From Herpomyces periplanetae (Eukaryota > Ascomycota > Laboulbeniomycetes > Herpomycetales > Herpomycetaceae), in the NCBI GenBank assembly GCA_009733715.1, contig WMKJ01000042.1:39829-103828 (forward strand): a stretch of DNA of 64,000 nt, written 5' to 3'. The notes under the pieces were generated by a model. It made no database searches and was not told the DNA's origin. It worked only from the letters and a program-made list of their open reading frames with translations. A program made the position numbers and the translations under genes. Within the stretch, counting starts at the first letter, position 1. Each line of letters starts with the position of its first letter. Below are positions 1,973 through 57,054 of this stretch, in pieces.

Positions 1973-4900
1973 CTACCTTCCTGTGCTCACATTCTCCCCG
2001 GTTCCATAACTTGAAAAGTAAAAGCCAATTATTATCACGGAATAAGAACAAAGCAAAATACTTCCCTTAAAGTAATTGCTTTTCCCTTCCCCGTACATGT
2101 ATGATAAGAGAAATACACAAAATATCACCGTTATCATGTCCCACTGTGGAAATATCGACACTTTTACACATGTATATATTAGCCCTTAATTCATCTTCTT
2201 CCAATTCTCTTCATCATCCCTCCAGTCTCTGCCTTGAACTTGTGAATATACATGTTTAAACTTACTGAAGCTGTGCTCTGTTAATCTCCAAGGCTCCGTA
2301 AATCTCTCCATTATCGTACTATACAGTACTAATGCGGGAATTTGAAGCAAACAAACTTGTAAGGCATATGCCGATCCAATCTCCATCGATAATGCTATGT
2401 TTCCATTCATCGCAAACAAAATCGCATTCTATCAAATTATCCCTCATTAGCTTTGCTTATTTTGCTTTCATTATCTTCTCTCATACTTACCAGGAACTCT
2501 GTTGCGTTTGGCACCAACGCAAATAATGTTAATCCTAAAAACTTTTCGCTCAAATTACTCACACTTAGTACCGCGCTAACCGTATTAACTAGTATCTCTG
2601 CTATAACAGCGTATGATATCGTAGCTGATAACAGAATTAATGCACTCTTTTTCCTACTCCAATTAGGCGCATCATGTTTATTATGCATCGCTGATATGTC
2701 TCCTTCTCCCATATCCACTCCTGAACTTCCCTGTCCATTCTCCGTTGCCTCACAATATCCAATTCTATCTCTATTCCAATCTGATTGTTGCCATAATGCT
2801 CCGCCATTTTCACTTTGCGCTGTCTTGCCCAAGCTTCGACTGGCATCTTGTGCTGCCACTGCTACTGCCGCAGCGGCCAATTCCACCATATTTTGAATCA
2901 GTACTTGATTTTCCTCTGAATATCTATCCAAACTTCTTCGGATGTCTATCCTTCCTCCGCTTCTACCGTGTCCCTTGTCTTTGTCCAACCCATTAATGTC
3001 ATCTCCTTCGCAATCGGAAATCCCCGAATCTCGACCTCGTTCTCTTTCAACACCTTTTCCCACATCGGTGTCACAAAAAAGTGTGTGTAAAACATGTTGA
3101 TATAATTTTGTCTTGCGTATATCGTCCCCACTCATCCCAATTCCAGATCCTTCAGCAACATGACCTCCATGTCCAGGTCCACTCCCATAATGATGATGGT
3201 GGTGATGATGATTTTGTTGTAAATCACCCTCGTGTCCCTTTTTCTCATCATGGTCCACGTTCCAAATACTTGCTGCATGCGTTCGCAACGTGAACATAAG
3301 ACCAATTATATACGATAAAAACAAAAATATTGCACATAATCGAATGTATGGCTTTACTGCTTCATTAAAAAATTTATCATCCACTGCTGGAACCTGTGAA
3401 AAATGACAACGCTTGCATTCATTATCCTTCTTCATTTCTGGTGCACCGCAATCCTGACATGTTAATTCATGCTAAATTAAACCGTAATCATTAGCCAATT
3501 TTTGTAAACCTTCTTCACTTACTACAGGGATACACAATACTTACGTTCCCGTATATTTGATAAAATAGTGTCGGACCAAAAGCCCCCAATACTGCAAACA
3601 ACAACATAGTTGATGTAACTCCCGCCGACTTAACATTGAATCGCTGCGTCTTTCGCCTCAATGCACCAAAACACATGGAAACCCCGGGTAAAAATAATAT
3701 CCCCGCAAACAAACTCCCAATTATACTTCCCTCAACTAACCGTGATCGACCCTCCTTCAACGCTATGCAATATAAATACACTTCCACTACTGTAGAGAAA
3801 AATGCGTTTATCGTAGCTCCAACCCCCATAGATGATTGCGCTGATATAGACGCTACTGCTTGTCCAATAAATATCGCTAATGGTATGGTAGACGATAGAG
3901 ATAGGAAAAACATCGGTGTATGATGTGATATAAATAAATCCAATCTTAAAGTTTTGTGTAAAATGTAATAATCAACTATAATGAATACAACAAGTCCCAG
4001 GAAATTAATCAAAATTATGTTCGTCCCATCCACCGTGTATTTCCAATACTTGAGACCTGCTGCTCGATAGGTGCACACAATAATTGTCGAATTCCGTTCT
4101 CCCAATTGTCCCGTACCCGACGTATCACTATGGAAGGATAAAGCTAATGGATGTCGACGTAAATGATTAAAGAGTAAAAAGGTAACCTTGCCCATTGGGA
4201 TACTGAATACCATAAGCCAGCATAAAAAAGACACTAGTAACAGCAAGGGTGAAATAATTCCGTAAAAGTACGCAAAAAAAAACACTCGACCCAGATTCCA
4301 CTTTCCACGCCCAAAAAATCGCTGTTTTCGTCTCCAATTCCCATTAACTTCACTCATTGATTCTCCTTCCGTTCGGCTTAAAAGCCGCTGGCTAGCCATA
4401 GGGTCTGAGCAATCTCGTGGCGTTCGTGTTAACGAATACGTTGTATTTAATGGCCCAAAGAAAAGCCTTCCCTCTTCTAACGATCCACTCTGCCACTGTT
4501 CATAATCAGACAAGCTTCTTCCCAGCCCTTCATCCTCTTCTGCATAGGCATCTTCTTGCACAAGTTTAACATATTTTCCGAACGGATAAAATAAGTATTT
4601 CGCTAATCCGAACAAAACGTTTCCGTACGCTGCTCCACCTCCATTACCACCGATGTTATGATCCCAAATTCTTATAATTAAACAACCACACCATCCCAAG
4701 AGCACAACTGCTGCGAGAATCCAGCCGAATAGCAGTGTCCAAACTAAATTAAAGAATAAAACACCATTACTCACAAAACCACCTGGTGCGGAGTGGATAT
4801 CCCCTTCTGCAGTAGCTTGAACCGATCTTTTTTTCTTGTACAATGCCGGTTTCCATATACGTATACCGAAAGGATGAGCCTCATTGATTGCATCCTGCCG

Positions 4901-5585
4901 ATCCTTTAGTGTAAAGCTATCACCATCATCATCATCATCCCCATCGTTAACATCGCAGTCAACATTGCTGATGCTTTCATTGGTATCTTTACCGCCGCCA
5001 ACACCATCACCAACATTTTCGTCCGTCGAATTTGTGCGAGAAGATTCACGAAATGATACACCAGTAGAGCAACCATTATCATTGTGCTCTTCAACGGCAG
5101 TATTTTGCTTGGATTTGGAAAAAATACGAGCAGCGGGTCGCCTTCTATTACCAGTAGCACGTTTTCTGATCAATTCGGCAGCAAATTTAACTTGTTGATA
5201 ATGCAGGGCACGATCTTGGTTGGCTTCCTCACATGTATCATCCACTGAAAATTCGGGGACTCTAGGAGGAATGTGTGCTGACACAGATCGGCTGGCTATT
5301 GAAATTTTCCGAGAATCATTGTTAAGCGTATGCATGTGCTTTTGTGACTTTGAACCACCTGAATCATGAGCACCTAATGGTATTTTACCGTACACGTTAA
5401 CATGTACTGTTTAAAGTTAGACGGAAGAATGGCAAAAGCTTACAATGATTATTCGAGTTGTTGAGATTACCATCGTTTGAATCTGCTTGTTTGTTTCCTT
5501 TTCGACATGTTGAATGGCAATCGCCAGCACTTCGTGTTGAAGAATTTGACGAGTTTAAACTAGCATAGCCACCGGAGAGACTCAT
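1973..5585 (-). CDS. VNX1: VNX1-like vacuolar cation/H+ antiporter (CAX superfamily) with His-rich loop
   Basis: Low-affinity cation/proton antiporter of the vacuole or endomembranes, Vnx1 branch of the CAX superfamily; Vnx1 is known for Na+/K+ exchange. Exons (minus) 5444-5585, 3545-5406, 2491-3471, 2266-2428 and 1973-2160 total 3,336 bases, or 1,111 residues. The first 200 or so residues are polar and probably cytosolic, followed by about 13 hydrophobic segments. The first exchanger repeat is recognisable by GVGATINAFFSTVVEVYLY and EGSIIGSLFAGILFLPGVSM. The second is LFALVPNATEFLNAILFAMN. Both replace the GNAAE/GNVVE motif of high-affinity Ca2+ exchangers, as Vnx1-type proteins do. Between the repeats lies a CxxC..CxxC zinc-ribbon-like element (Cys 673, 676, 687, 690). 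After it comes a loop with seven consecutive histidines (756-762) and more His/Gly. Ion specificity is inferred from the family. Confidence 0.9.
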
Positions 5586-42193: not shown

Positions 42194-44770
42194 ATGGATA
42201 GCATGAATCAAAATGAAGAGTTATATCCAATCGCGGTTTTAATTGACGAGCTTAAGGTATGCACATAATAATCCATCTTCTACCCTCGTTGAACGATGCT
42301 TAATTGTCGTTACATTCGACACATTATGTACAAGCCGTGGTGATGTAAGACTGTGTCAGCATAATATGTATTAGTTTTCTCGCAAAGCCCAGTTGGAAGA
42401 TAAATTTATTCCATTTACGGTTAAGCTGCAACAGGCGTTTAACCGTGACTCGCTTTCCACTTAAATGCTAACGATTTATAAGCATGACGATGTTCTCTGT
42501 CGATTGCATGCGATTCATCGCTTATCGACAATTGCTTTAGCACTGGGTCCTGAGCGTACGCGTGAGGAGTTGATTCCTTTCCTCGACGGTTAGTCTTGCG
42601 TAATTGGCGTGGAACTTAACGATATTATTGTTTTTTTGTATATTTACCAATCAAGTTCTTGCTAACTTGGTATTACATTTTTAGATTCATTGGAAGATGA
42701 AGACGAAGTATTGGTCGCTTTATGTGAAGAGTTGGGAAATTTTGTAGAGTACGTCGGTGGTGCAGAGTACGGTCACTTTCTATTAGCCCCTTTGGAGAAT
42801 CTCGCAACTTTAGAAGAACCATTGGTGCGAGAAAAGGCAAGTTTAGCATTGCTTAATTTGAACAATTTCATTCATTTTTAAGTTAACTAGGATCATTTTG
42901 AGCAACGAATTTTCTAACATGATATAAAGGCATCTGAGTCACTTATAAAAATTTGTGAAGAGCTGTCAGCCCAGCAAATTGAGGATCATTTCATACCACT
43001 TGTATTACGACTATCAAAAGCGGATTGGTTTACCTCTAAGGTGTCGGCTACAGTTTTATATTCGGCCCCGTATAGCCGTGCTTCAGATGGATCAAAGGAA
43101 ATTCTTCGGCAACATTTTAGCCTTCTGGTTCATGATGAAACACCCATGGTTCGAAGGCAGGCGGCGACAAATTTGGCAATGTTTATTAAAAAATTAAATC
43201 CAAAAATAATTGTCGAGGAGATAATACCACTCTTTCAGCATCTCGCAACCGATGATCAAGATAGCGTAAGACTTTTGACAGTTGAAGCGCTGATAAGTAT
43301 ATGTGAAATGCTTCCTAAGGATCAACATATTAACAATGGAACCATTCTTACTGCTCTGAAAAGTCTTTCTGAGGATAAAAGTTGGAGAGTGCGATACATG
43401 ATTGCTGATCGTTTCGAGAAGGTTAGAACAAATGAAGTTGAAGGTAAAATTAAACGCTAACACGAAACCGGTACCCACGATAGATTGCAACGGTTGTGAA
43501 TAGTGAAATTGTTGGACGCGAATTGTTAGCGGCATTTATTAAGTTGTTAAAGGATACCGAAGCCGAGGTTCGTACAGCTATTACGGGCCAAATAAGTGGT
43601 AGGTTAAAATGAGTTGGATATGATTAGACGTTGAAAGTTCGTTACTTTTCTAATTATCAGATGAACGTAATTGTAGGATTCTGTCGTTTACTCGATCGAG
43701 ATGTACTTATCCAAGATGTTATGTTGGCAATTGAAGAACTTGTATCGGATTCATCACAGCATGTTCGAGCCGCATTGGGATTACAGCTCAGTGGTTTAGC
43801 GCCGATACTTAGAAAGGAAGAGTAGGTTAAAGTTTTGTTACAGACGAACCTTTTTGGATATTTTACAAATGGCTGACTGTATGTTTAGGACGATATCACA
43901 TTTGTTGCCAATGCTGTTGAATATGCTCAAAGATGAATACCCGGATGTGCGATTGAACATTATATCAAAGTTGGAACTGGTTAATAACGTTGTGGGAATT
44001 GATCACCTTTCACAATCACTCTTACCTGCGATAGTTCAGCTTGCAGAAGATAAAAAATGGAGGGTACGACTGGCAATTATTCAGTATGTACCGTTTCTGG
44101 CATTTCAATTAGGCGTGAAATTCTTCGACGAAAAGTTGTCGTCACTTTGTATGTCGTGGCTGGGAGATACGGTTTTTAGTATTCGTGAAGCGTCGACCCA
44201 TAATTTGAAATTGTTAGCGGAAGTGTTTGGAGCGGCTTGGGCGAACGAGACAATTATACCTAAAGTTATGGCGATGGGACAACATTCGAATTACTTGTAC
44301 CGAATGACAACATGTTTTGCCGTTTCGGTAAGTGATAAAAGTCAAGTTCATTAAGGTAAATGAACGTTTAATAAATAAAATGATGTTAACACTCAGAGTT
44401 TGTCTAGACTTTGGCGCCTGCTTTATCGCTTCATATTATCGAGACGTCAATTCTGCCAATGCTTGATAAATTGGTTAGTGATGACATTCCGAATATTCGG
44501 TTTAATGTAGCCAAATCGTACGGGAAATTGATTGAAGTGTTGAAAAGATTACCGGATGATGAGCAATTGACTCTGTTGAAAGCTCAAAAGGAAGGACAAG
44601 AGTCGAGATTGACGGGGAGTAAACGCGGCGAAGAATTGATCATAGAGCATATTATGCCTAATTTGGCAAAGTTACAGCAAGACGAGGATGTCGATGTAAG
44701 GTATTTTGCTCTAGTGGCGGCTCAAGTTATGGAGGGGAACGAGGGGAATATTGATGTCATGGAAACTTAA
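42194..44770 (+). CDS. TPD3: Protein phosphatase 2A scaffold (A/PR65) subunit
   Basis: HEAT-repeat scaffold that holds the PP2A catalytic and B-type subunits together. Eight exons (42194-42256, 42483-42588, 42685-42836, 42930-43421, 43484-43598, 43677-43821, 43889-44327, 44408-44770) total 1,875 bases, or 624 residues. It opens with [15 protein letters not shown] and continues with [107 protein letters not shown] and [18 protein letters not shown]. The last repeats have [14 protein letters not shown], followed by a roughly 35-residue charged insertion absent from human PR65, and [13 protein letters not shown]. Intron 3 begins with GC instead of GT. The gene is divergent from FRS1. Identity is certain; all joins restore HEAT-repeat sequence. 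Confidence 0.96.
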
Positions 44771-44820
44771 GACGGGGAATGAAAAGGCATGGCGAGACGG
44801 GATAAGACACAGCAAGACGG

Positions 44821-44856
44821 GACAAGACAAGACAAGACAAGACATGACATGACATG
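44821..44856. repeat. Pentanucleotide tandem repeat (GACAA)4(GACAT)3
   Basis: Four exact copies of GACAA followed by three of GACAT, just 50 bases past the PP2A stop codon, with looser GACGG-like copies on both sides. Simple microsatellite in a 3' flank. Confidence 0.85.
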
Positions 44857-49164: not shown

Positions 49165-49588
49165 TAATTTTTTCGATATGTTATTTTGTGATCCATGTAC
49201 CATAGTTAACACCACAATTCATCTTTAATTTTATCATTTCGAAAAAAATACAAATCCCTTCGTGCACGCGGCCATCAATACTTTCCGACTCCATACCAAA
49301 TTCCACTGTAGCCTTTAAAATGTTTTTTCCAAATTGATTTTTAGTGCACGATATGATTTGAAGAAGTCTATTTCAGACATGATATTTTCTTTATTTTCCC
49401 TTAAATCTCGTCGACTTTGGTCCATTTTTCCCTTCGTTTCTCCCATTCCTGCCCATTACATAAGTTGACCGCAATATATATCCCTATTACCAAAAAGGGT
49501 AATTTCATCGTCAGAATATTTAAACGCGCCAAAACTGAAAATTCGTAACTTAACCTTCTAGATATCATTTATACCGACTTATATTCAA
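49165..49588. other. Intergenic region between tandem genes
   Basis: 424 AT-rich bases between the rhodopsin-domain gene and the phosphatase gene; 3' flank of the first and promoter of the second. No distinct element seen. Confidence 0.5.
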
Positions 49589-51850
49589 ATGGATTGCCCT
49601 TCGTTGAATTTGCACTTAATTACTTTAAACTGTGCTACTAATCATGTTTTACCCAAAATTCTGGCTCATGACATTTATCATAGTATAATAAACTCATCAT
49701 CTTCCAAAAATTCTCCGGAAAATTCTAATAAATCTCACCATAATGATGAGTCGTTCAACTTAACAAATTCCGTTTCTTTACCTGACTGTCTCATAATAAG
49801 CTTACAAGAGATTGCGCCTATTAGAGTGGCTTTTTTAGGTTTCGACTTTTTAAAAAGCTACCTTGATCGAATAATTTATGCTGTCCAATTGGCCGCTCAA
49901 AAAATCGTCCAATCTCATCAGATTAAAAATTCCCTTGCCAACTGCTCTACTAATTCCAACAAATCTTCGTCTTCCCTCATATCTGCTGATGCTTTTGAAT
50001 ACAATGGTTCATCTTGCTATTCTCATGTAGCTATTAAATGTCTAGGCATGACAGGCTTGATGGTATTTCTTCGCCCTCATGTAATGGATTCACTTTCCTG
50101 GATAGCATCTGCAGAAGTTGGTTTGGGCGTCCTTAACATGGGTAACAAAGGTGCTGTAGGCCTTCGATTTGGTTTTAATCTCCAAAATTTTACCAAATAT
50201 TCTACAAATCAATTCATTCCCCACTCCCCCCAACATTCACCCTCTTCTACTCTATTCTCTAGTACCAACTTCAGTCAATCATCTTACTGTTTAGAATTAA
50301 CTTTTATTGCCGCTCACCTTGCACCACATGAATGGAACGTTAAGCAGCGTAATTATAATTGGGAAATTATTCAACGTTATCTCGTTTTTACGCCTGACCC
50401 TTCGCTCATGAAATCTCTCAAGAGCCGCCCGTCAAGCCTGTCAAATCAAGCGTCGACCTCACATTCAACTTTTACTGTTAACCAAAACGCATCAAATTAT
50501 TGCCCATCTCAACTATCCAACAAAAAAACAAACTTAAAAAATTCAGATGAGCTGCACTCTTTACTTAGAGCCCAACCTAACGATGATAACTTCAGTGAAA
50601 ACACAACCTGTTTTCATAATCCTATACACACCTTTTCCCCGGATACTACGGAGTGTACTGAACCATTACCCAGTAACTATATTTGCTATAATGGATACCA
50701 TTTGAACCAGAATTCTGGAATGTACCAACCCACTAGTTTTGGTACAAGCCAGAGCGTCATAATTGATCATCAATTTTGCAAAGATGAGGTTTCTGATCCA
50801 AGTTTAATACCACGTGAAAATGCAATAACATCCCCGAATACGTCAAAGATATTTCAAGTGCTTTTCGTTCTTGGGGACATGAATTACAGAACTGCCAATT
50901 GGCCTCCTACGGATCCAATTGGACTAGAAAAAAAACTTAATCCAATCCATGATACCAATTGCGAAGAGGGAATTTATGATAATAAAACTATAGCTCAAAC
51001 ACAAGTTAATAACTCTGGTAACAAAACTTGCACTAGTATTTTTGAACATATTCCATACTTGAAGGAACTTTTGATTAATGATCAATTAACAAAAGAGCGT
51101 AGAGCAGGTCGGACATTTCATGCACTAACTGAACAAAAGATCGAATTTCCCCCCACATACAAATATCAGTTTCATCTTCACTGGATTCGCAGCCCTCGTA
51201 CAACTGATTGTACAAGGGATGTAAATTGTGCTAATGCCCCAAAGTTATTGGTGAAGCGAGTTCCATATGCCCAACGCAAAAATATTACCTGGACCGATTG
51301 GATAAATACTCGGGAAAATATCTTGTCAAGTCTCCAGTCCGATGCTGATACACAATTATTATCATGCACAGATTCTAGCACATTGGATAACTACACATAT
51401 GTTTCCGATAAACTTTATTGGAACTTTCATAAAAATCCCTCATGGTGTGATAGAATACTTTATTTACCCCAAAATTTCATTAGTGTATTTGGTTATAAGT
51501 GCCTACGTATTCAGCCAACGTCAGATCATCGCCCCGTGAGTTTATCAGCAAATATTCAACTCTATAAATTGTTGAACTATCATGCTCCAGAATATTCATT
51601 GCCTGAGGAAGAATCAACTTTGAGTGGAGAACCTGTCGATTCAATCAAATCCCTCTTTGTGACCGTCCCATGTATATCATTGGCTTCACCATTTTCCCGA
51701 CGAGTTCGTCGCCTTATTGCTCGGATTTTGGAAATTTCCGTGGGTAGTCTTTTATGGTCACTGACGTTTCCGACACGTTTTCCCATCACTATGTCGGTTT
51801 TTGGATTAATTACAACACTAATCCTATGTAAACAAGTTTTCGGAACATGA
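49589..51850 (+). CDS. INP54: Inositol polyphosphate 5-phosphatase, tail-anchored (INP54-like)
   Basis: Removes the 5-phosphate from phosphoinositides such as PI(4,5)P2; yeast Inp54 does this at the ER. Single exon of 753 residues, nearly twice yeast Inp54 (384). The catalytic fold is present in order: LHLITLNCATN, DCLIISLQEIAP (catalytic Glu), VGLGVLNMGNKGAVGLRF, LTFIAAHLAPHE, VLFVLGDMNYRT (about 430), FPPTYKYQF, NPSWCDRILY (about 615) and TSDHRPVSL (about 645). The extra length is Asn/Ser-rich insertions after residues 40, 105, 210 and especially 275-415. The C-terminus has a hydrophobic stretch (PITMSVFGLITTLILC) a few residues before the end, fitting a tail anchor as in Inp54. It converges on the haspin gene. 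Confidence 0.9.
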   Translation: MDCPSLNLHLITLNCATNHVLPKILAHDIYHSIINSSSSKNSPENSNKSHHNDESFNLTNSVSLPDCLIISLQEIAPIRVAFLGFDFLKSYLDRIIYAVQLAAQKIVQSHQIKNSLANCSTNSNKSSSSLISADAFEYNGSSCYSHVAIKCLGMTGLMVFLRPHVMDSLSWIASAEVGLGVLNMGNKGAVGLRFGFNLQNFTKYSTNQFIPHSPQHSPSSTLFSSTNFSQSSYCLELTFIAAHLAPHEWNVKQRNYNWEIIQRYLVFTPDPSLMKSLKSRPSSLSNQASTSHSTFTVNQNASNYCPSQLSNKKTNLKNSDELHSLLRAQPNDDNFSENTTCFHNPIHTFSPDTTECTEPLPSNYICYNGYHLNQNSGMYQPTSFGTSQSVIIDHQFCKDEVSDPSLIPRENAITSPNTSKIFQVLFVLGDMNYRTANWPPTDPIGLEKKLNPIHDTNCEEGIYDNKTIAQTQVNNSGNKTCTSIFEHIPYLKELLINDQLTKERRAGRTFHALTEQKIEFPPTYKYQFHLHWIRSPRTTDCTRDVNCANAPKLLVKRVPYAQRKNITWTDWINTRENILSSLQSDADTQLLSCTDSSTLDNYTYVSDKLYWNFHKNPSWCDRILYLPQNFISVFGYKCLRIQPTSDHRPVSLSANIQLYKLLNYHAPEYSLPEEESTLSGEPVDSIKSLFVTVPCISLASPFSRRVRRLIARILEISVGSLLWSLTFPTRFPITMSVFGLITTLILCKQVFGT

Positions 51851-52268: not shown

Positions 52269-54323
52269 TTAATCAGTATCAGAGTCACGAAGCCAACCTC
52301 GCTGCAGTGCCCATATAACGAGGTCCTGCGTACAAAACAATTCGGGAAATTTTAGAGAGTCGATGTGTTGTTGGTTTTGTACTACTCTTCGGGAAGTTCG
52401 TAAGGGTCTATGTGCAGATTGGATGGGCTTATACGAACGTGGATCTAAACGTTCGTTGACATGATTCAAAATCTTTAACAGGGAATTTCCATGATTCAAA
52501 ATCTTCTGTGGATTCTGAGTGCCGCGAATACGCTTCATTAAATTCGCCACGTCAAGAATTTCCTTGCTAGATATAAGCGGGTTCTCACCTTTAATATTGG
52601 ACGTTGATGAGCAAGTATCAGCTTGTTTATCCTGGGGTTCAGGGCAACCCTTTTTACCCATTGAATTTGCTTCTTTATGATCAATTAAAGGGTCAACTTC
52701 CAATACATTTTGCCGTGAAGCTGAACTTGCATGTTCCGGCAAAATGGGGCACTGGTTCAACAGTTCGTATAGCACAAAATGTAACCAGATCAAGTTAGTC
52801 TGGGGATGAAAACCACGCCACGTTCGACCTGTTTTTAATGCTTTCTGTGGTAACAAAGTATCACATGTATCGCCAGATTTATTTCCTATACGAGTCTTTT
52901 TTCGCAACGTTAACTTTTCTAGAGGATTGTCAAAGTACATGGCTGATCGCATATACCGGTAAATCTCGTACTGATAATTTTCTTAAGCATCACCTTCGAA
53001 AATGGCAGGGTCAGCGTTTAAATCAAAATACAAAACTTCAGGCTCAGATTGGCATACGGAATCCGTTAGTTCGGCGCGTGATAACGTATAGTCAATAATT
53101 GTAACCTGCAGATCTGTAAAGTGTAGCGTACGATTTGATGAATCCAGGTGAATAATCGGATCCGCTAGACCTCCAATTCCCCGTGATTTTGACATACAAC
53201 AAATATTTCCAAGATGTAGATCACGATGTTCGAATTTTGCTTCTTGTTCCGCTCGTGCTAAAGCTAAAACAACACTCCAGAATATGTCCCAGAGTGCCCA
53301 AACATCCGGTATTTGAAAGTGTTCTAAATCCGTACCTGCGTCTTGCATTTCGATAATAGCCCATAACTGATCAGATGAATGACTAGGCGCAATACATGAT
53401 ACAGACGAATCGTAAGATGCGTAATTTTTATCGTTATACTTGTGCCAGGCACTAAGAAATTCGGGTGATAATGGGCCCTTGACAATGTGAACATCTCGAA
53501 AATTAGTGAATCCGGGAATTTCAGTAAGTCGTTGAAGTAAGCGAACTTCGCACAATACGTTGGACACATCGCTTAGTTCGGGTGAATGTGAATTAACAAT
53601 CTGATTGAGCGTTGCTGATTTATCTTCTGCATTTATTGGTGATGCAGAATCTGGTTGTAACGCCAATGCTTTTAACACACTTTCGTCAGATTTGCTTAAT
53701 CCTTGAATATTTTCTCGTAGTGAAAGGCGGTACACTTCTCCGTACGACGCTTCGGCTATTTTTTCAATATCCAAATGTTCGACAAGACGTTTACTCCACT
53801 CATCAAAGGATATTGGTACATTTTTATCTTCTGGATCAAGGGATATTGACAGTAACCTATCCAGACTATGCGATGGAACTGGTTCTTGATTCAATTCCAG
53901 ACTGAGTAGACCTTTAGTTATTCCATCTGTTGTTACTTTGGAGGGTGATTTGACCGGAGTTTCGATTAATCGAGAATCATACTGCAATGTATGATCCGAC
54001 TCTGATAGATCGGATAATTCGTCCTTATTCAATAATTCTGTCTTATGTTGTGTAGCCGATTCTAATGTCCTCTTTTTATCATTTAGCTCAAAATCGGTAA
54101 CTTGAGATGTTCGTGGAGACGGTGTTCCGTCGATCACCTTTGTCCATGCAGATAATGTACCCGAAGTGTAGCCAGAATGTAGCCTTCGGCATCCGTAAAC
54201 AACTGGCTTACGACTACCGTATGTCATATCATTTGGATACTGTCTCCCTTCAACCGTCGATTCCACAAGTTTCCTTGAGTATCTTTTTAAAATTTTTACA
54301 ACTTTTATAATTTTCGTAATCAC
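52269..54323 (-). CDS. Haspin-family protein kinase, with one in-frame stop codon
   Basis: Haspin phosphorylates histone H3 Thr3 to recruit the chromosomal passenger complex to centromeres. One frame of 685 codons on the minus strand, interrupted once by TAA at 52983-52985. Before it: a disordered N-terminus with TYGSRKPVVYG, a glycine-loop-like ASYGEVYRL (about 188), then LWAIIEMQDAGTDLEHF, EHRDLHLGNIC (about 363) and IIDYTLSR (about 409), where DYT replaces DFG as in all haspins. After it, in the same frame: YQYEIYRYMR, TWRGFHPQTNLIWLHFVLYE, an insertion of about 80 polar residues, and FCTQDLVIWALQRGWL. Conserved sequence flanks the stop with no length gap. The stop may be real (truncated kinase or young pseudogene), an error, or removed by splicing 52971-53057. 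Confidence 0.8.
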
Positions 54324-54824: not shown

Positions 54825-55427
54825 TCATACAACAAAGTCAATGCAATTTTCGTAAGACTGTTTAGCCCTTGTACCAAACCAAAACCATTGTAAAGTACAC
54901 ATGCCAGGGCGTGCGCAAGACTGACTAAGAGTAGGATCATTGGGGATACGAACTGAAAAGAGGGTATTATTAGCTGGCAAAGGTCTCGCGAACTCATCAG
55001 CATAGTTCATATCTTCAATAAGGGGTGTATACAAGGGTCGGTTCATTATTGGATTAATTATGCTAACATTCATGGGCCCAGCATGAGGTATGGGTAATGC
55101 AGCGCGTACACGAATAAGTTGACCAGGTCGAAAACGTTGTATTCGATCTAAATTATCCTCGAGTTGAGTACCTCCACACACGAAAACATTACATTGAGAA
55201 GTTGCTTGCGTTAACGGTATATTTTCCAGTGGAGCCGTATCGTCTTGCCGGAATGCATTAACTGCCGGTGCACCACACACTTGCATCATACGAATTCCTA
55301 CGGTGCGTGCTGGCGGTGAAATTATTTTGCCATGTGCGGCTACCTGCGAAACCGTAAACAAAAGTGTTACGAGAAGCGATGCGAAAATGGAAACGGAAAG
55401 TGACCCGCTTCGTAAAGTTAACATCAT
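54825..55427 (-). CDS. Secreted LPMO-like (chitin-binding type-4 fold) protein
   Basis: Probable copper-dependent lytic polysaccharide monooxygenase or a close non-catalytic relative, acting on cell-wall polysaccharide outside the cell. From the ATG at 55427, 200 residues: a signal peptide of about 31 residues ending SQVAA, so that the mature protein starts with His32 (HGKIISPPART), the first ligand of a copper histidine brace. A second candidate ligand is in LPIPHAGPMNVSIINP. Six cysteines (CGAP, QCNVFVC, SCARPGMC, ENC) fit three disulfides, and WFWFGTRAKQSYENC resembles the family's C-terminal strand. I recognise the type from fungal proteins annotated as chitin-binding type 4 or LPMO; the exact auxiliary-activity family is not assigned. 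The frame is open upstream, but the Met at 55427 places the signal peptide correctly. Confidence 0.75.
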   Translation of the reverse strand: MMLTLRSGSLSVSIFASLLVTLLFTVSQVAAHGKIISPPARTVGIRMMQVCGAPAVNAFRQDDTAPLENIPLTQATSQCNVFVCGGTQLEDNLDRIQRFRPGQLIRVRAALPIPHAGPMNVSIINPIMNRPLYTPLIEDMNYADEFARPLPANNTLFSVRIPNDPTLSQSCARPGMCTLQWFWFGTRAKQSYENCIDFVV

Positions 55428-57054
55428 GGTTCCAAATTCGATGAAGAAAAGTAGGATACGATTGTATAGCCTAAGTCCGTTTGTTATGGAAAGGTTTAGT
55501 AGAATAATAACTGCTTTAAGGAAGCGTTTGTAAATCGTGGTCCTTATGTTAGTACCCGTCTGCGTAACCTGTACTGAGGTGGACAACACAAGTCTAAATG
55601 ATCAGTGAATGAGTGAATAAATGGTTAAAACACGAAGAGTAAACCGCCAACGCTAGCATTAGCTTCCAAACTTATTATAAATAAGGCAAGTGAACGCAGC
55701 GCAGAAAATTTACACGTTGCCCACTTTATAAAGGTAATTGTGTGTAAGTGCAAGTAACTCGTTAGCTGGTTGCACAAAATGTAAGAGTAAATCTTTTCTT
55801 CGACGCTTAACCGACTGTGTCCCTGTTATATATACAAGGAAAAGTCCATGATATTTGTGTAACTTGCTGGGATAATAAGAAAGAGAACGGGCACGCATAT
55901 AAAATTGGTTCAATCTAAGCTTAGGTCTTGATAAGACTTCACCTGTGGTGATTGTTCGGAATCCGACTCTTGAATCCCCAGTATTGGCCATAGCATAAAT
56001 TAACAAAGTTTTAAATCGTTCGTTGATTACGGGCTTATTGAATCCCTGTGTACAATGAAACGATCTATTCTTATTGTTTAACGTAAAGAATACACATATT
56101 CATATGCGAGATTATTCGATTTAACCTATAGGTGTATGCCAGGGGTAAATTGTGAAACGTGGGCTAACCGTTTGATGTTATTGAACTAAACAAATGATGA
56201 AACACTTAACATTCCCTTGCATATGGGCTAACTACATCGGGATCGTAGTTTGACCCCCTGGAGTATTCCTTCTAGTAATTTTTTTCCTTGCTCATTCCAC
56301 ACATCTCGGAGAATCCGTATCTTCCGAAAAACTCAAAACTACGCAGTGTCTCTACTCGTATTCTCACACAAATCCGCTGCCGGGCAAACTTGTACGAAAG
56401 CATAGTATCGTCGGTTAACCTACCCCAATCTTGTACTTCCGTTCGTATTAACTTAGTCCATAACATAATATTCGGGCATACTTACCCTTCTCTTTTAACC
56501 CGGACAATTTAGTTATAACGTTGACTCTTGGAAACATCTCCTGTCAGTGTTCACTCATTAACGTTAAGGAACCGCAAACTTTGTTTATACCATGACCCAT
56601 ATTTTAACAAAGCAACGAGCATTAATCACATACAATATTCATTATCTTTCTTACCCTTGGGGTAGCTTTATCCTTCGTTAAAATGATCAGTAATTCTATG
56701 TGATAGTGTGAGATTTACGTAGTTAGCGGTCCAAAAGACTTTTTATTGGTAATTAATTTATAGAGTGTAGATAAGGTTAATGAAACACATGTTAACTTTT
56801 CCTTGAAGAAACGAATGATTAATTTTGGTAAAGTGAAAACAAGCATTGTCAGTTTCTAGAGAACAAAAAGTAAGTTCATGTTAACGACAGTTGCAAAAAG
56901 AATGGAGCGTGAATGGTCGAGGAAGACATAGCAAAATTATGTCCCGTAATAAGCAATATATTATCAACGTGTATGAAAGTGAAACAGTTGTCGTGTGTAT
57001 TGTATACATGGTGAATGGATTCAGGTTAGGGTTATGGTCAAAGTTTTGATCAAT
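55428..57054. other. Intergenic region, about 1.6 kb, no recognised gene
   Basis: Promoter side of the LPMO-like gene and 3' flank of the FGGY kinase gene. The largest frame (55710-56006, minus, 98 codons) is basic and aromatic-rich without family resemblance. No RNA gene, repeat or CACGTG box noticed. Confidence 0.45.

What the first reader, a model, noticed from the sequence alone, without database searches (positions are those of the whole stretch)
52971..53057. In-frame stop inside an otherwise intact haspin kinase, within a possible 87-base exitron
The TAA at 52983-52985 (minus strand) splits a haspin gene whose two halves are in the same frame and look conserved right up to the stop (IFEGDA before, then ENYQYEIYR after; human haspin has an LFTGDGDYQFDIYR-type segment here with matching length). 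So the stop sits where a sense codon is expected. A segment from GTATGC (donor at 53057) to TTATCAG (acceptor ending 52971) is 87 bases, a multiple of three, starts and ends in phase 0, and contains a CTGAC branch-like site. Splicing it would remove the stop but also the conserved segment. Three outcomes are possible: a kinase truncated before its last lobe elements, a young pseudogene or assembly error, or a regulated exitron with two isoforms.
Basis: partly seen in the sequence, partly recalled or inferred. Interest (0 to 1): 0.75.

Follow-up and report, generated by a model that had tools for sequence, protein, structure and literature searches.

The report
Haspin kinase with one premature stop
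A cell-division kinase gene that otherwise looks intact carries one premature stop codon, and the removable segment proposed around it is what chance would give, so this is most likely an ordinary recent broken allele or a sequence error.

Summary
The stop is in the sequence: TAA at 52985-52983 (minus strand) splits one haspin gene (ATG 54227, terminal TAA 52271-52269) into two in-frame parts that match Pfam Haspin_kinase at profile 35-276 and 278-341. One correction: against human haspin the stop lies in a two-residue insertion, so the length does not match. The 87-base segment is haspin coding sequence: with the next 29 codons, and the stop as X, it alone scores 27.1 bits (E 2.7e-6), so it is not an ancestral intron. 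The exitron has no positive support. Its splice signals score below 12 of 16 homology-inferred introns of this window; 96 of 3845 frame-keeping GT-AG pairs in coding stretches do at least as well; 2352 of 6459 triplets lie under such a pair; three other pairs over this stop score higher. Unspliced RNA gives a truncated kinase and spliced RNA one lacking conserved sequence. No second lesion was seen in 651 codons, so the stop is very young, an error, or bypassed. Best reading: a recent nonsense allele (slightly favoured) or a base error. I had no reads, whole genome or relatives to separate these. Ordinary; low interest.

The parts
52986..54227 (-). Haspin coding sequence, first part (414 codons), with the HRD and DYT motifs (53228-53220 and within 53099-53076)
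   Evidence: Pfam PF12330 profile 35-276, 108.6 bits; human haspin E 3.9e-16; motif coordinates
52983..52985 (-). In-frame TAA
   Evidence: in a two-residue insertion against human haspin
52272..52982 (-). Haspin coding sequence, second part (237 codons), followed by TAA 52271-52269
   Evidence: Pfam PF12330 profile 278-341, 36.4 bits; no stop in frame, 15 and 20 stops in the other two frames
52971..53057 (-). 87-base GT-AG segment proposed as exitron; judged coding sequence with chance splice-like ends
   Evidence: splice score 11.99, lower than 12 of 16 inferred introns; as part of 53057-52884 matches PF12330, 27.1 bits
52959..52961 (-). Tyr codon aligned with human Tyr722, eight codons after the stop
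   Evidence: alignment; role of Tyr722 from passages of PMC3513839; numbering fitted by me from HRD 647-649

Best explanation
An ordinary haspin gene in which one codon has very recently become TAA: a real nonsense allele of the sequenced strain or haplotype. Shown: the stop, and an otherwise open frame with conserved haspin sequence on both sides. Inferred: translation ends there and leaves a kinase that keeps the HRD and DYT motifs but lacks the equivalents of human Tyr722 and Trp733 and the rest of the C-lobe, so it should be inactive, and the transcript may be degraded. The GT-AG pair around the stop is coincidence.
For: Two in-frame parts at profile 35-276 and 278-341; 156.3 bits for the whole with X at the stop, against 108.6 and 36.4 for the parts. 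No other stop or frame break in 651 codons, which limits neutral divergence since loss to about 0.7-1.0% under an assumed 0.1-0.15 indels per substitution, or 2.8% from stops alone. TAA also ends the haspin gene itself and several neighbours, so no other code is needed. Haspin loss can be tolerated: budding yeast lacking both haspins is grown and assayed, though it fails under mitotic delay (PMC7308332, passages).
Against: A base or assembly error would look the same; no reads, second assembly or relatives were available. Three lesion-free neighbour genes aligned say little about the error rate.
Confidence: 0.5

Rival explanations
1. Base-calling or assembly error: the strain's genome has a sense codon here and an intact haspin.
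For: A single lesion in 651 codons with everything after it conserved is just what an isolated error gives.
Against: The frame is exactly kept, whereas many long-read errors are indels (recalled). The window has no ambiguous bases, and the longest run near the stop is AAAA.
Confidence: 0.38
2. Regulated exitron: splicing 53057-52971 removes the stop and gives a second isoform.
For: GT-AG ends, length a multiple of three, donor GTATGC also used by an inferred PP2A intron, CTGAC 40 bases upstream. Weak splice sites are typical of exitrons according to a review (PMC5602073, passages), so the low score alone does not exclude it. The spliced product would keep YEIYR with the Tyr722 equivalent.
Against: 96 of 3845 frame-keeping pairs score as well, 2352 of 6459 triplets lie under such a pair, and the pair ranks fourth of 29 over this stop. 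The segment is conserved haspin sequence. The unspliced form is truncated, while exitrons as reviewed keep a full-length unspliced isoform.
Confidence: 0.03
3. The stop is recoded in RNA or protein: A-to-I editing, or translational readthrough.
For: The Fusarium graminearum kinase gene puk1 had an intron annotated over in-frame stops that are in fact edited to tryptophan codons (PMC7306014, passages).
Against: UAA needs both adenosines edited, since either single edit leaves a stop codon. No RNA data. TAA terminates other genes here. UAA is the least leaky stop (recalled).
Confidence: 0.04
4. A functional truncated haspin-like protein, with the second part unused or translated apart from an ATG 11 codons after the stop.
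For: HRD and DYT are in the first part; in-frame ATGs lie at codons 11 and 15 of the second part.
Against: The second part keeps conserved haspin sequence and an open frame, which a long-standing truncation would not maintain unless it is translated.
Confidence: 0.05

Closest known systems
Haspin kinase family (Pfam PF12330; human haspin 2vuw)
   Same: Both parts match at neighbouring profile positions; HRD and DYT motifs, YxxxIYR and WxxxHPxxNxxWLH present
   Different: One in-frame stop, in a two-residue insertion before the YQYEIYR stretch
Exitrons (as reviewed in PMC5602073)
   Same: GT-AG ends, length a multiple of three, inside coding sequence
   Different: Unspliced form truncated by a stop; no transcript evidence; signals at chance level here
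Premature-stop correction by A-to-I editing (Fusarium graminearum puk1, PMC7306014)
   Same: In-frame stop inside a kinase gene that invites a false intron call
   Different: puk1 has two adjacent stops edited to tryptophan codons; UAA would need two edits in one codon; no RNA evidence here
Young nonsense (loss-of-function) alleles
   Same: One stop in an otherwise intact, conserved frame
   Different: Nothing known to differ; a sequence error is not excluded

Membership tests
Haspin kinase | Match to Haspin_kinase above the curated cut-off (25 bits) | tested here: met
   108.6 and 36.4 bits for the parts; 156.3 with X
Haspin kinase | HRD catalytic and DYT metal-binding motifs | tested here: met
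   aligned with human haspin; coordinates
Haspin kinase | Continuous open frame through the kinase domain | tested here: not met
   TAA at 52985-52983
Exitron | Transcripts both with and without the segment | not testable with these tools
   no RNA reads available
Exitron | Unspliced form codes for the full-length protein | tested here: not met
   the segment contains TAA; description of exitrons from passages
Exitron | Splice signals beyond chance | tested here: not met
   96 of 3845 pairs as good, fourth of 29 over this stop; exitron sites are said to be weak, so this does not exclude one
Ordinary intron | Non-coding segment absent from the protein of relatives | tested here: not met
   53057-52884 matches PF12330 at 259-291 and aligns with human haspin
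Decayed pseudogene | Several disabling lesions or lost conservation | tested here: not met
   one lesion in 651 codons; second part conserved
A-to-I stop correction | Stop convertible to a sense codon by one edit (UAG or UGA) | tested here: not met
   codon is UAA
Reassigned stop codon | TAA read as sense in other genes | tested here: not met
   TAA ends haspin itself, and the ORFs of the RPT6-like ATPase, the exchanger, the FGGY kinase, PP2A A and a 437-aa ORF; one search took the ends of ORFs, not of transcripts

The most novel reading that the evidence does not exclude
The stop is kept and used: haspin activity is switched by conditional removal of a stop-containing segment (perhaps by one of the better-scoring pairs over the stop rather than the 87-base one) or by recoding of the stop, so that a complete or altered kinase is made only at one life stage.
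Probability: 0.05. Interest if true: 0.6.

Novelty: already known. Interest (0 to 1): 0.12.

Why it matters
If the stop is real, this is a natural loss-of-function allele of haspin, of modest interest. The practical lesson is that an in-frame stop with a frame-keeping GT-AG pair around it is not evidence of an exitron: in the coding stretches examined here about a third of triplets (2352 of 6459) lie under a pair at least as good. If it were a used switch, it would be a stage control of a mitotic kinase, which would be notable, but nothing here speaks for that.

Tried and rejected
Relatives: two viral contigs protein scans and one genome contigs protein scan matched peptide patterns at 2, 3 and 22 stretches, none confirmed by tblastn. 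Two degenerate DNA patterns around the stop gave 0 matches, one in genome contigs and one in viral contigs. These collections are prokaryotic or viral, so their silence says little about eukaryote relatives. No whole genome is held, so a second haspin copy could not be sought. Rfam (gathering threshold) and ARAGORN found nothing in the window.

Ancestral intron at the stop: rejected, because residues identical to human haspin lie two codons before and three codons after it; the shortest frame-keeping GT-AG pair that I could read over the stop is 12 bases (sequence). The 108-base pair 52993-52886 scores better than the 87-base one (14.51 against 11.99) but would remove YQYEIYR. Another genetic code: rejected. 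Coding-like codon use of the 87 bases: only weak support, since 3 of 16 inferred introns have a higher best-frame value.

Papers: 'exitron' with 'fungi' (16 papers hold both, 15 listed) and with 'fungal' (13, 10 listed) showed no listed title on exitrons of a fungus (listings only). 'haspin', 'kinome', 'chytrid' together: 0 papers.

Not done: no structure was predicted.

Full report
WHAT IS THERE. On the minus strand a frame opens with ATG 54227 and runs 414 codons to TAA 52985-52983; it goes on in the same frame for 237 codons to TAA 52271-52269. The first part matches Pfam Haspin_kinase at profile 35-276 (108.6 bits) and the second at 278-341 (36.4 bits); with X at the stop the whole scores 156.3 bits. 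Against human haspin (2vuw) the E-value goes from 3.9e-16 for the first part to 5.7e-23 for the whole with X; the second part alone reaches only 0.1. HRD and DYT lie in the first part; YEIYR and TWRGFHPQTNLIWLHF lie after the stop.

WHERE THE STOP SITS. In one search the window reads G-D-A-stop-E-N-Y-Q-Y where human haspin reads G-D-G-D-Y-Q-F: the stop lies in a two-residue insertion before YQFDIYR. In the printed stretch around the stop 12 of 30 aligned residues are identical. So 'matching length' does not hold against human; I had no fungal haspin to compare. The codon aligned with human Tyr722 follows eight codons later. [quoted passage not shown] both positions align after the stop, with numbering fitted by me from HRD 647-649. 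A product ending at the stop should therefore be inactive (inference).

INTRON OR EXITRON? From homology I inferred 16 introns in six neighbour genes: PP2A A, EB1, an RPT6-like ATPase, PheRS beta, an FGGY kinase and an Na/Ca exchanger (family checks by Pfam). One search proposed 13; I dropped one (44539-44619, over what looks like a coding insertion) and re-read one as a GC-AG intron (42837-42929). Four more came, three of them chosen by me from two possibilities each. None has transcript support. With donor, branch and acceptor scores trained on these, the 87-base pair reaches 11.99, more than 4 of the 16 when each is left out in turn, less than 12. In 16 coding stretches of 21,284 bases (some from uncharacterised ORFs, haspin included) 96 of 3845 frame-keeping GT-AG pairs of 45-250 bases score at least as high, and 2352 of 6459 triplets lie under one. 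Of 29 frame-keeping pairs of 20-250 bases over this stop it ranks fourth. The pair is what chance gives. For its being a possible donor: GTATGC is also the donor of the first inferred PP2A intron.

The stretch itself is haspin: 53057-52884, with X, matches the profile at 259-291 (27.1 bits, cut-off 25). Its 87 bases have coding-like codon use in frame 0 (0.254 per codon against -0.167 and -0.131), but 3 of 16 inferred introns reach higher best-frame values, so this test is weak. Exitrons as reviewed keep a full-length unspliced isoform and tend to have weak splice sites (PMC5602073, passages): the first is not met here, and the second means that a low score alone does not exclude one.

AGE. 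There is no further stop or frame break in 651 codons. 322 of 5859 possible single changes would make a stop; with an assumed 0.1-0.15 indels per substitution, seeing none limits neutral divergence since loss to 0.7-1.0%, or 2.8% from stops alone (95%). The open second part has a chance of about 3e-7 by base composition. So the stop is very recent, an error, or bypassed.

WHICH? Nothing at hand separates allele from error: no reads, no genome, no relatives. I lean slightly to a real allele, because the frame is exactly kept and haspin loss can be borne: budding yeast lacking both haspins is grown and assayed, though haspin is needed to withstand mitotic delay (PMC7308332, passages). This is judgement. 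The fungal puk1 case, where an intron was annotated over stops that RNA editing in fact changes (PMC7306014, passages), is the nearest precedent for a surprise; a UAA would need two edits.

LIMITS. The organism was not identified; that it is a fungus is my inference from gene content and intron signals. Gene names beyond the Pfam families are recalled. No structure was predicted.

Noticed in passing
54825-55601 (-): ORF upstream of haspin with a weak match to lytic polysaccharide mono-oxygenase LPMO_10, 23.1 bits against a cut-off of 23.
   Followed up: no
42837-42929 (+): Probable GC-AG intron in the PP2A A-subunit gene (AAG|GCAAGT ... TAAAG), inferred from homology only.
   Followed up: partly
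44795-44854 (+): Short tandem repeat (unit about AAGAC) just after the PP2A A-subunit ORF.
   Followed up: no
49562-51850 (+): 762-aa ORF matching Exo_endo_phos2 in four stretches, inositol-phosphatase-like (the last name is recalled).
   Followed up: no
3518-5410 (-): Exchanger ORF that carries a YccF domain (42.8 bits) ahead of Na_Ca_ex.
   Followed up: no
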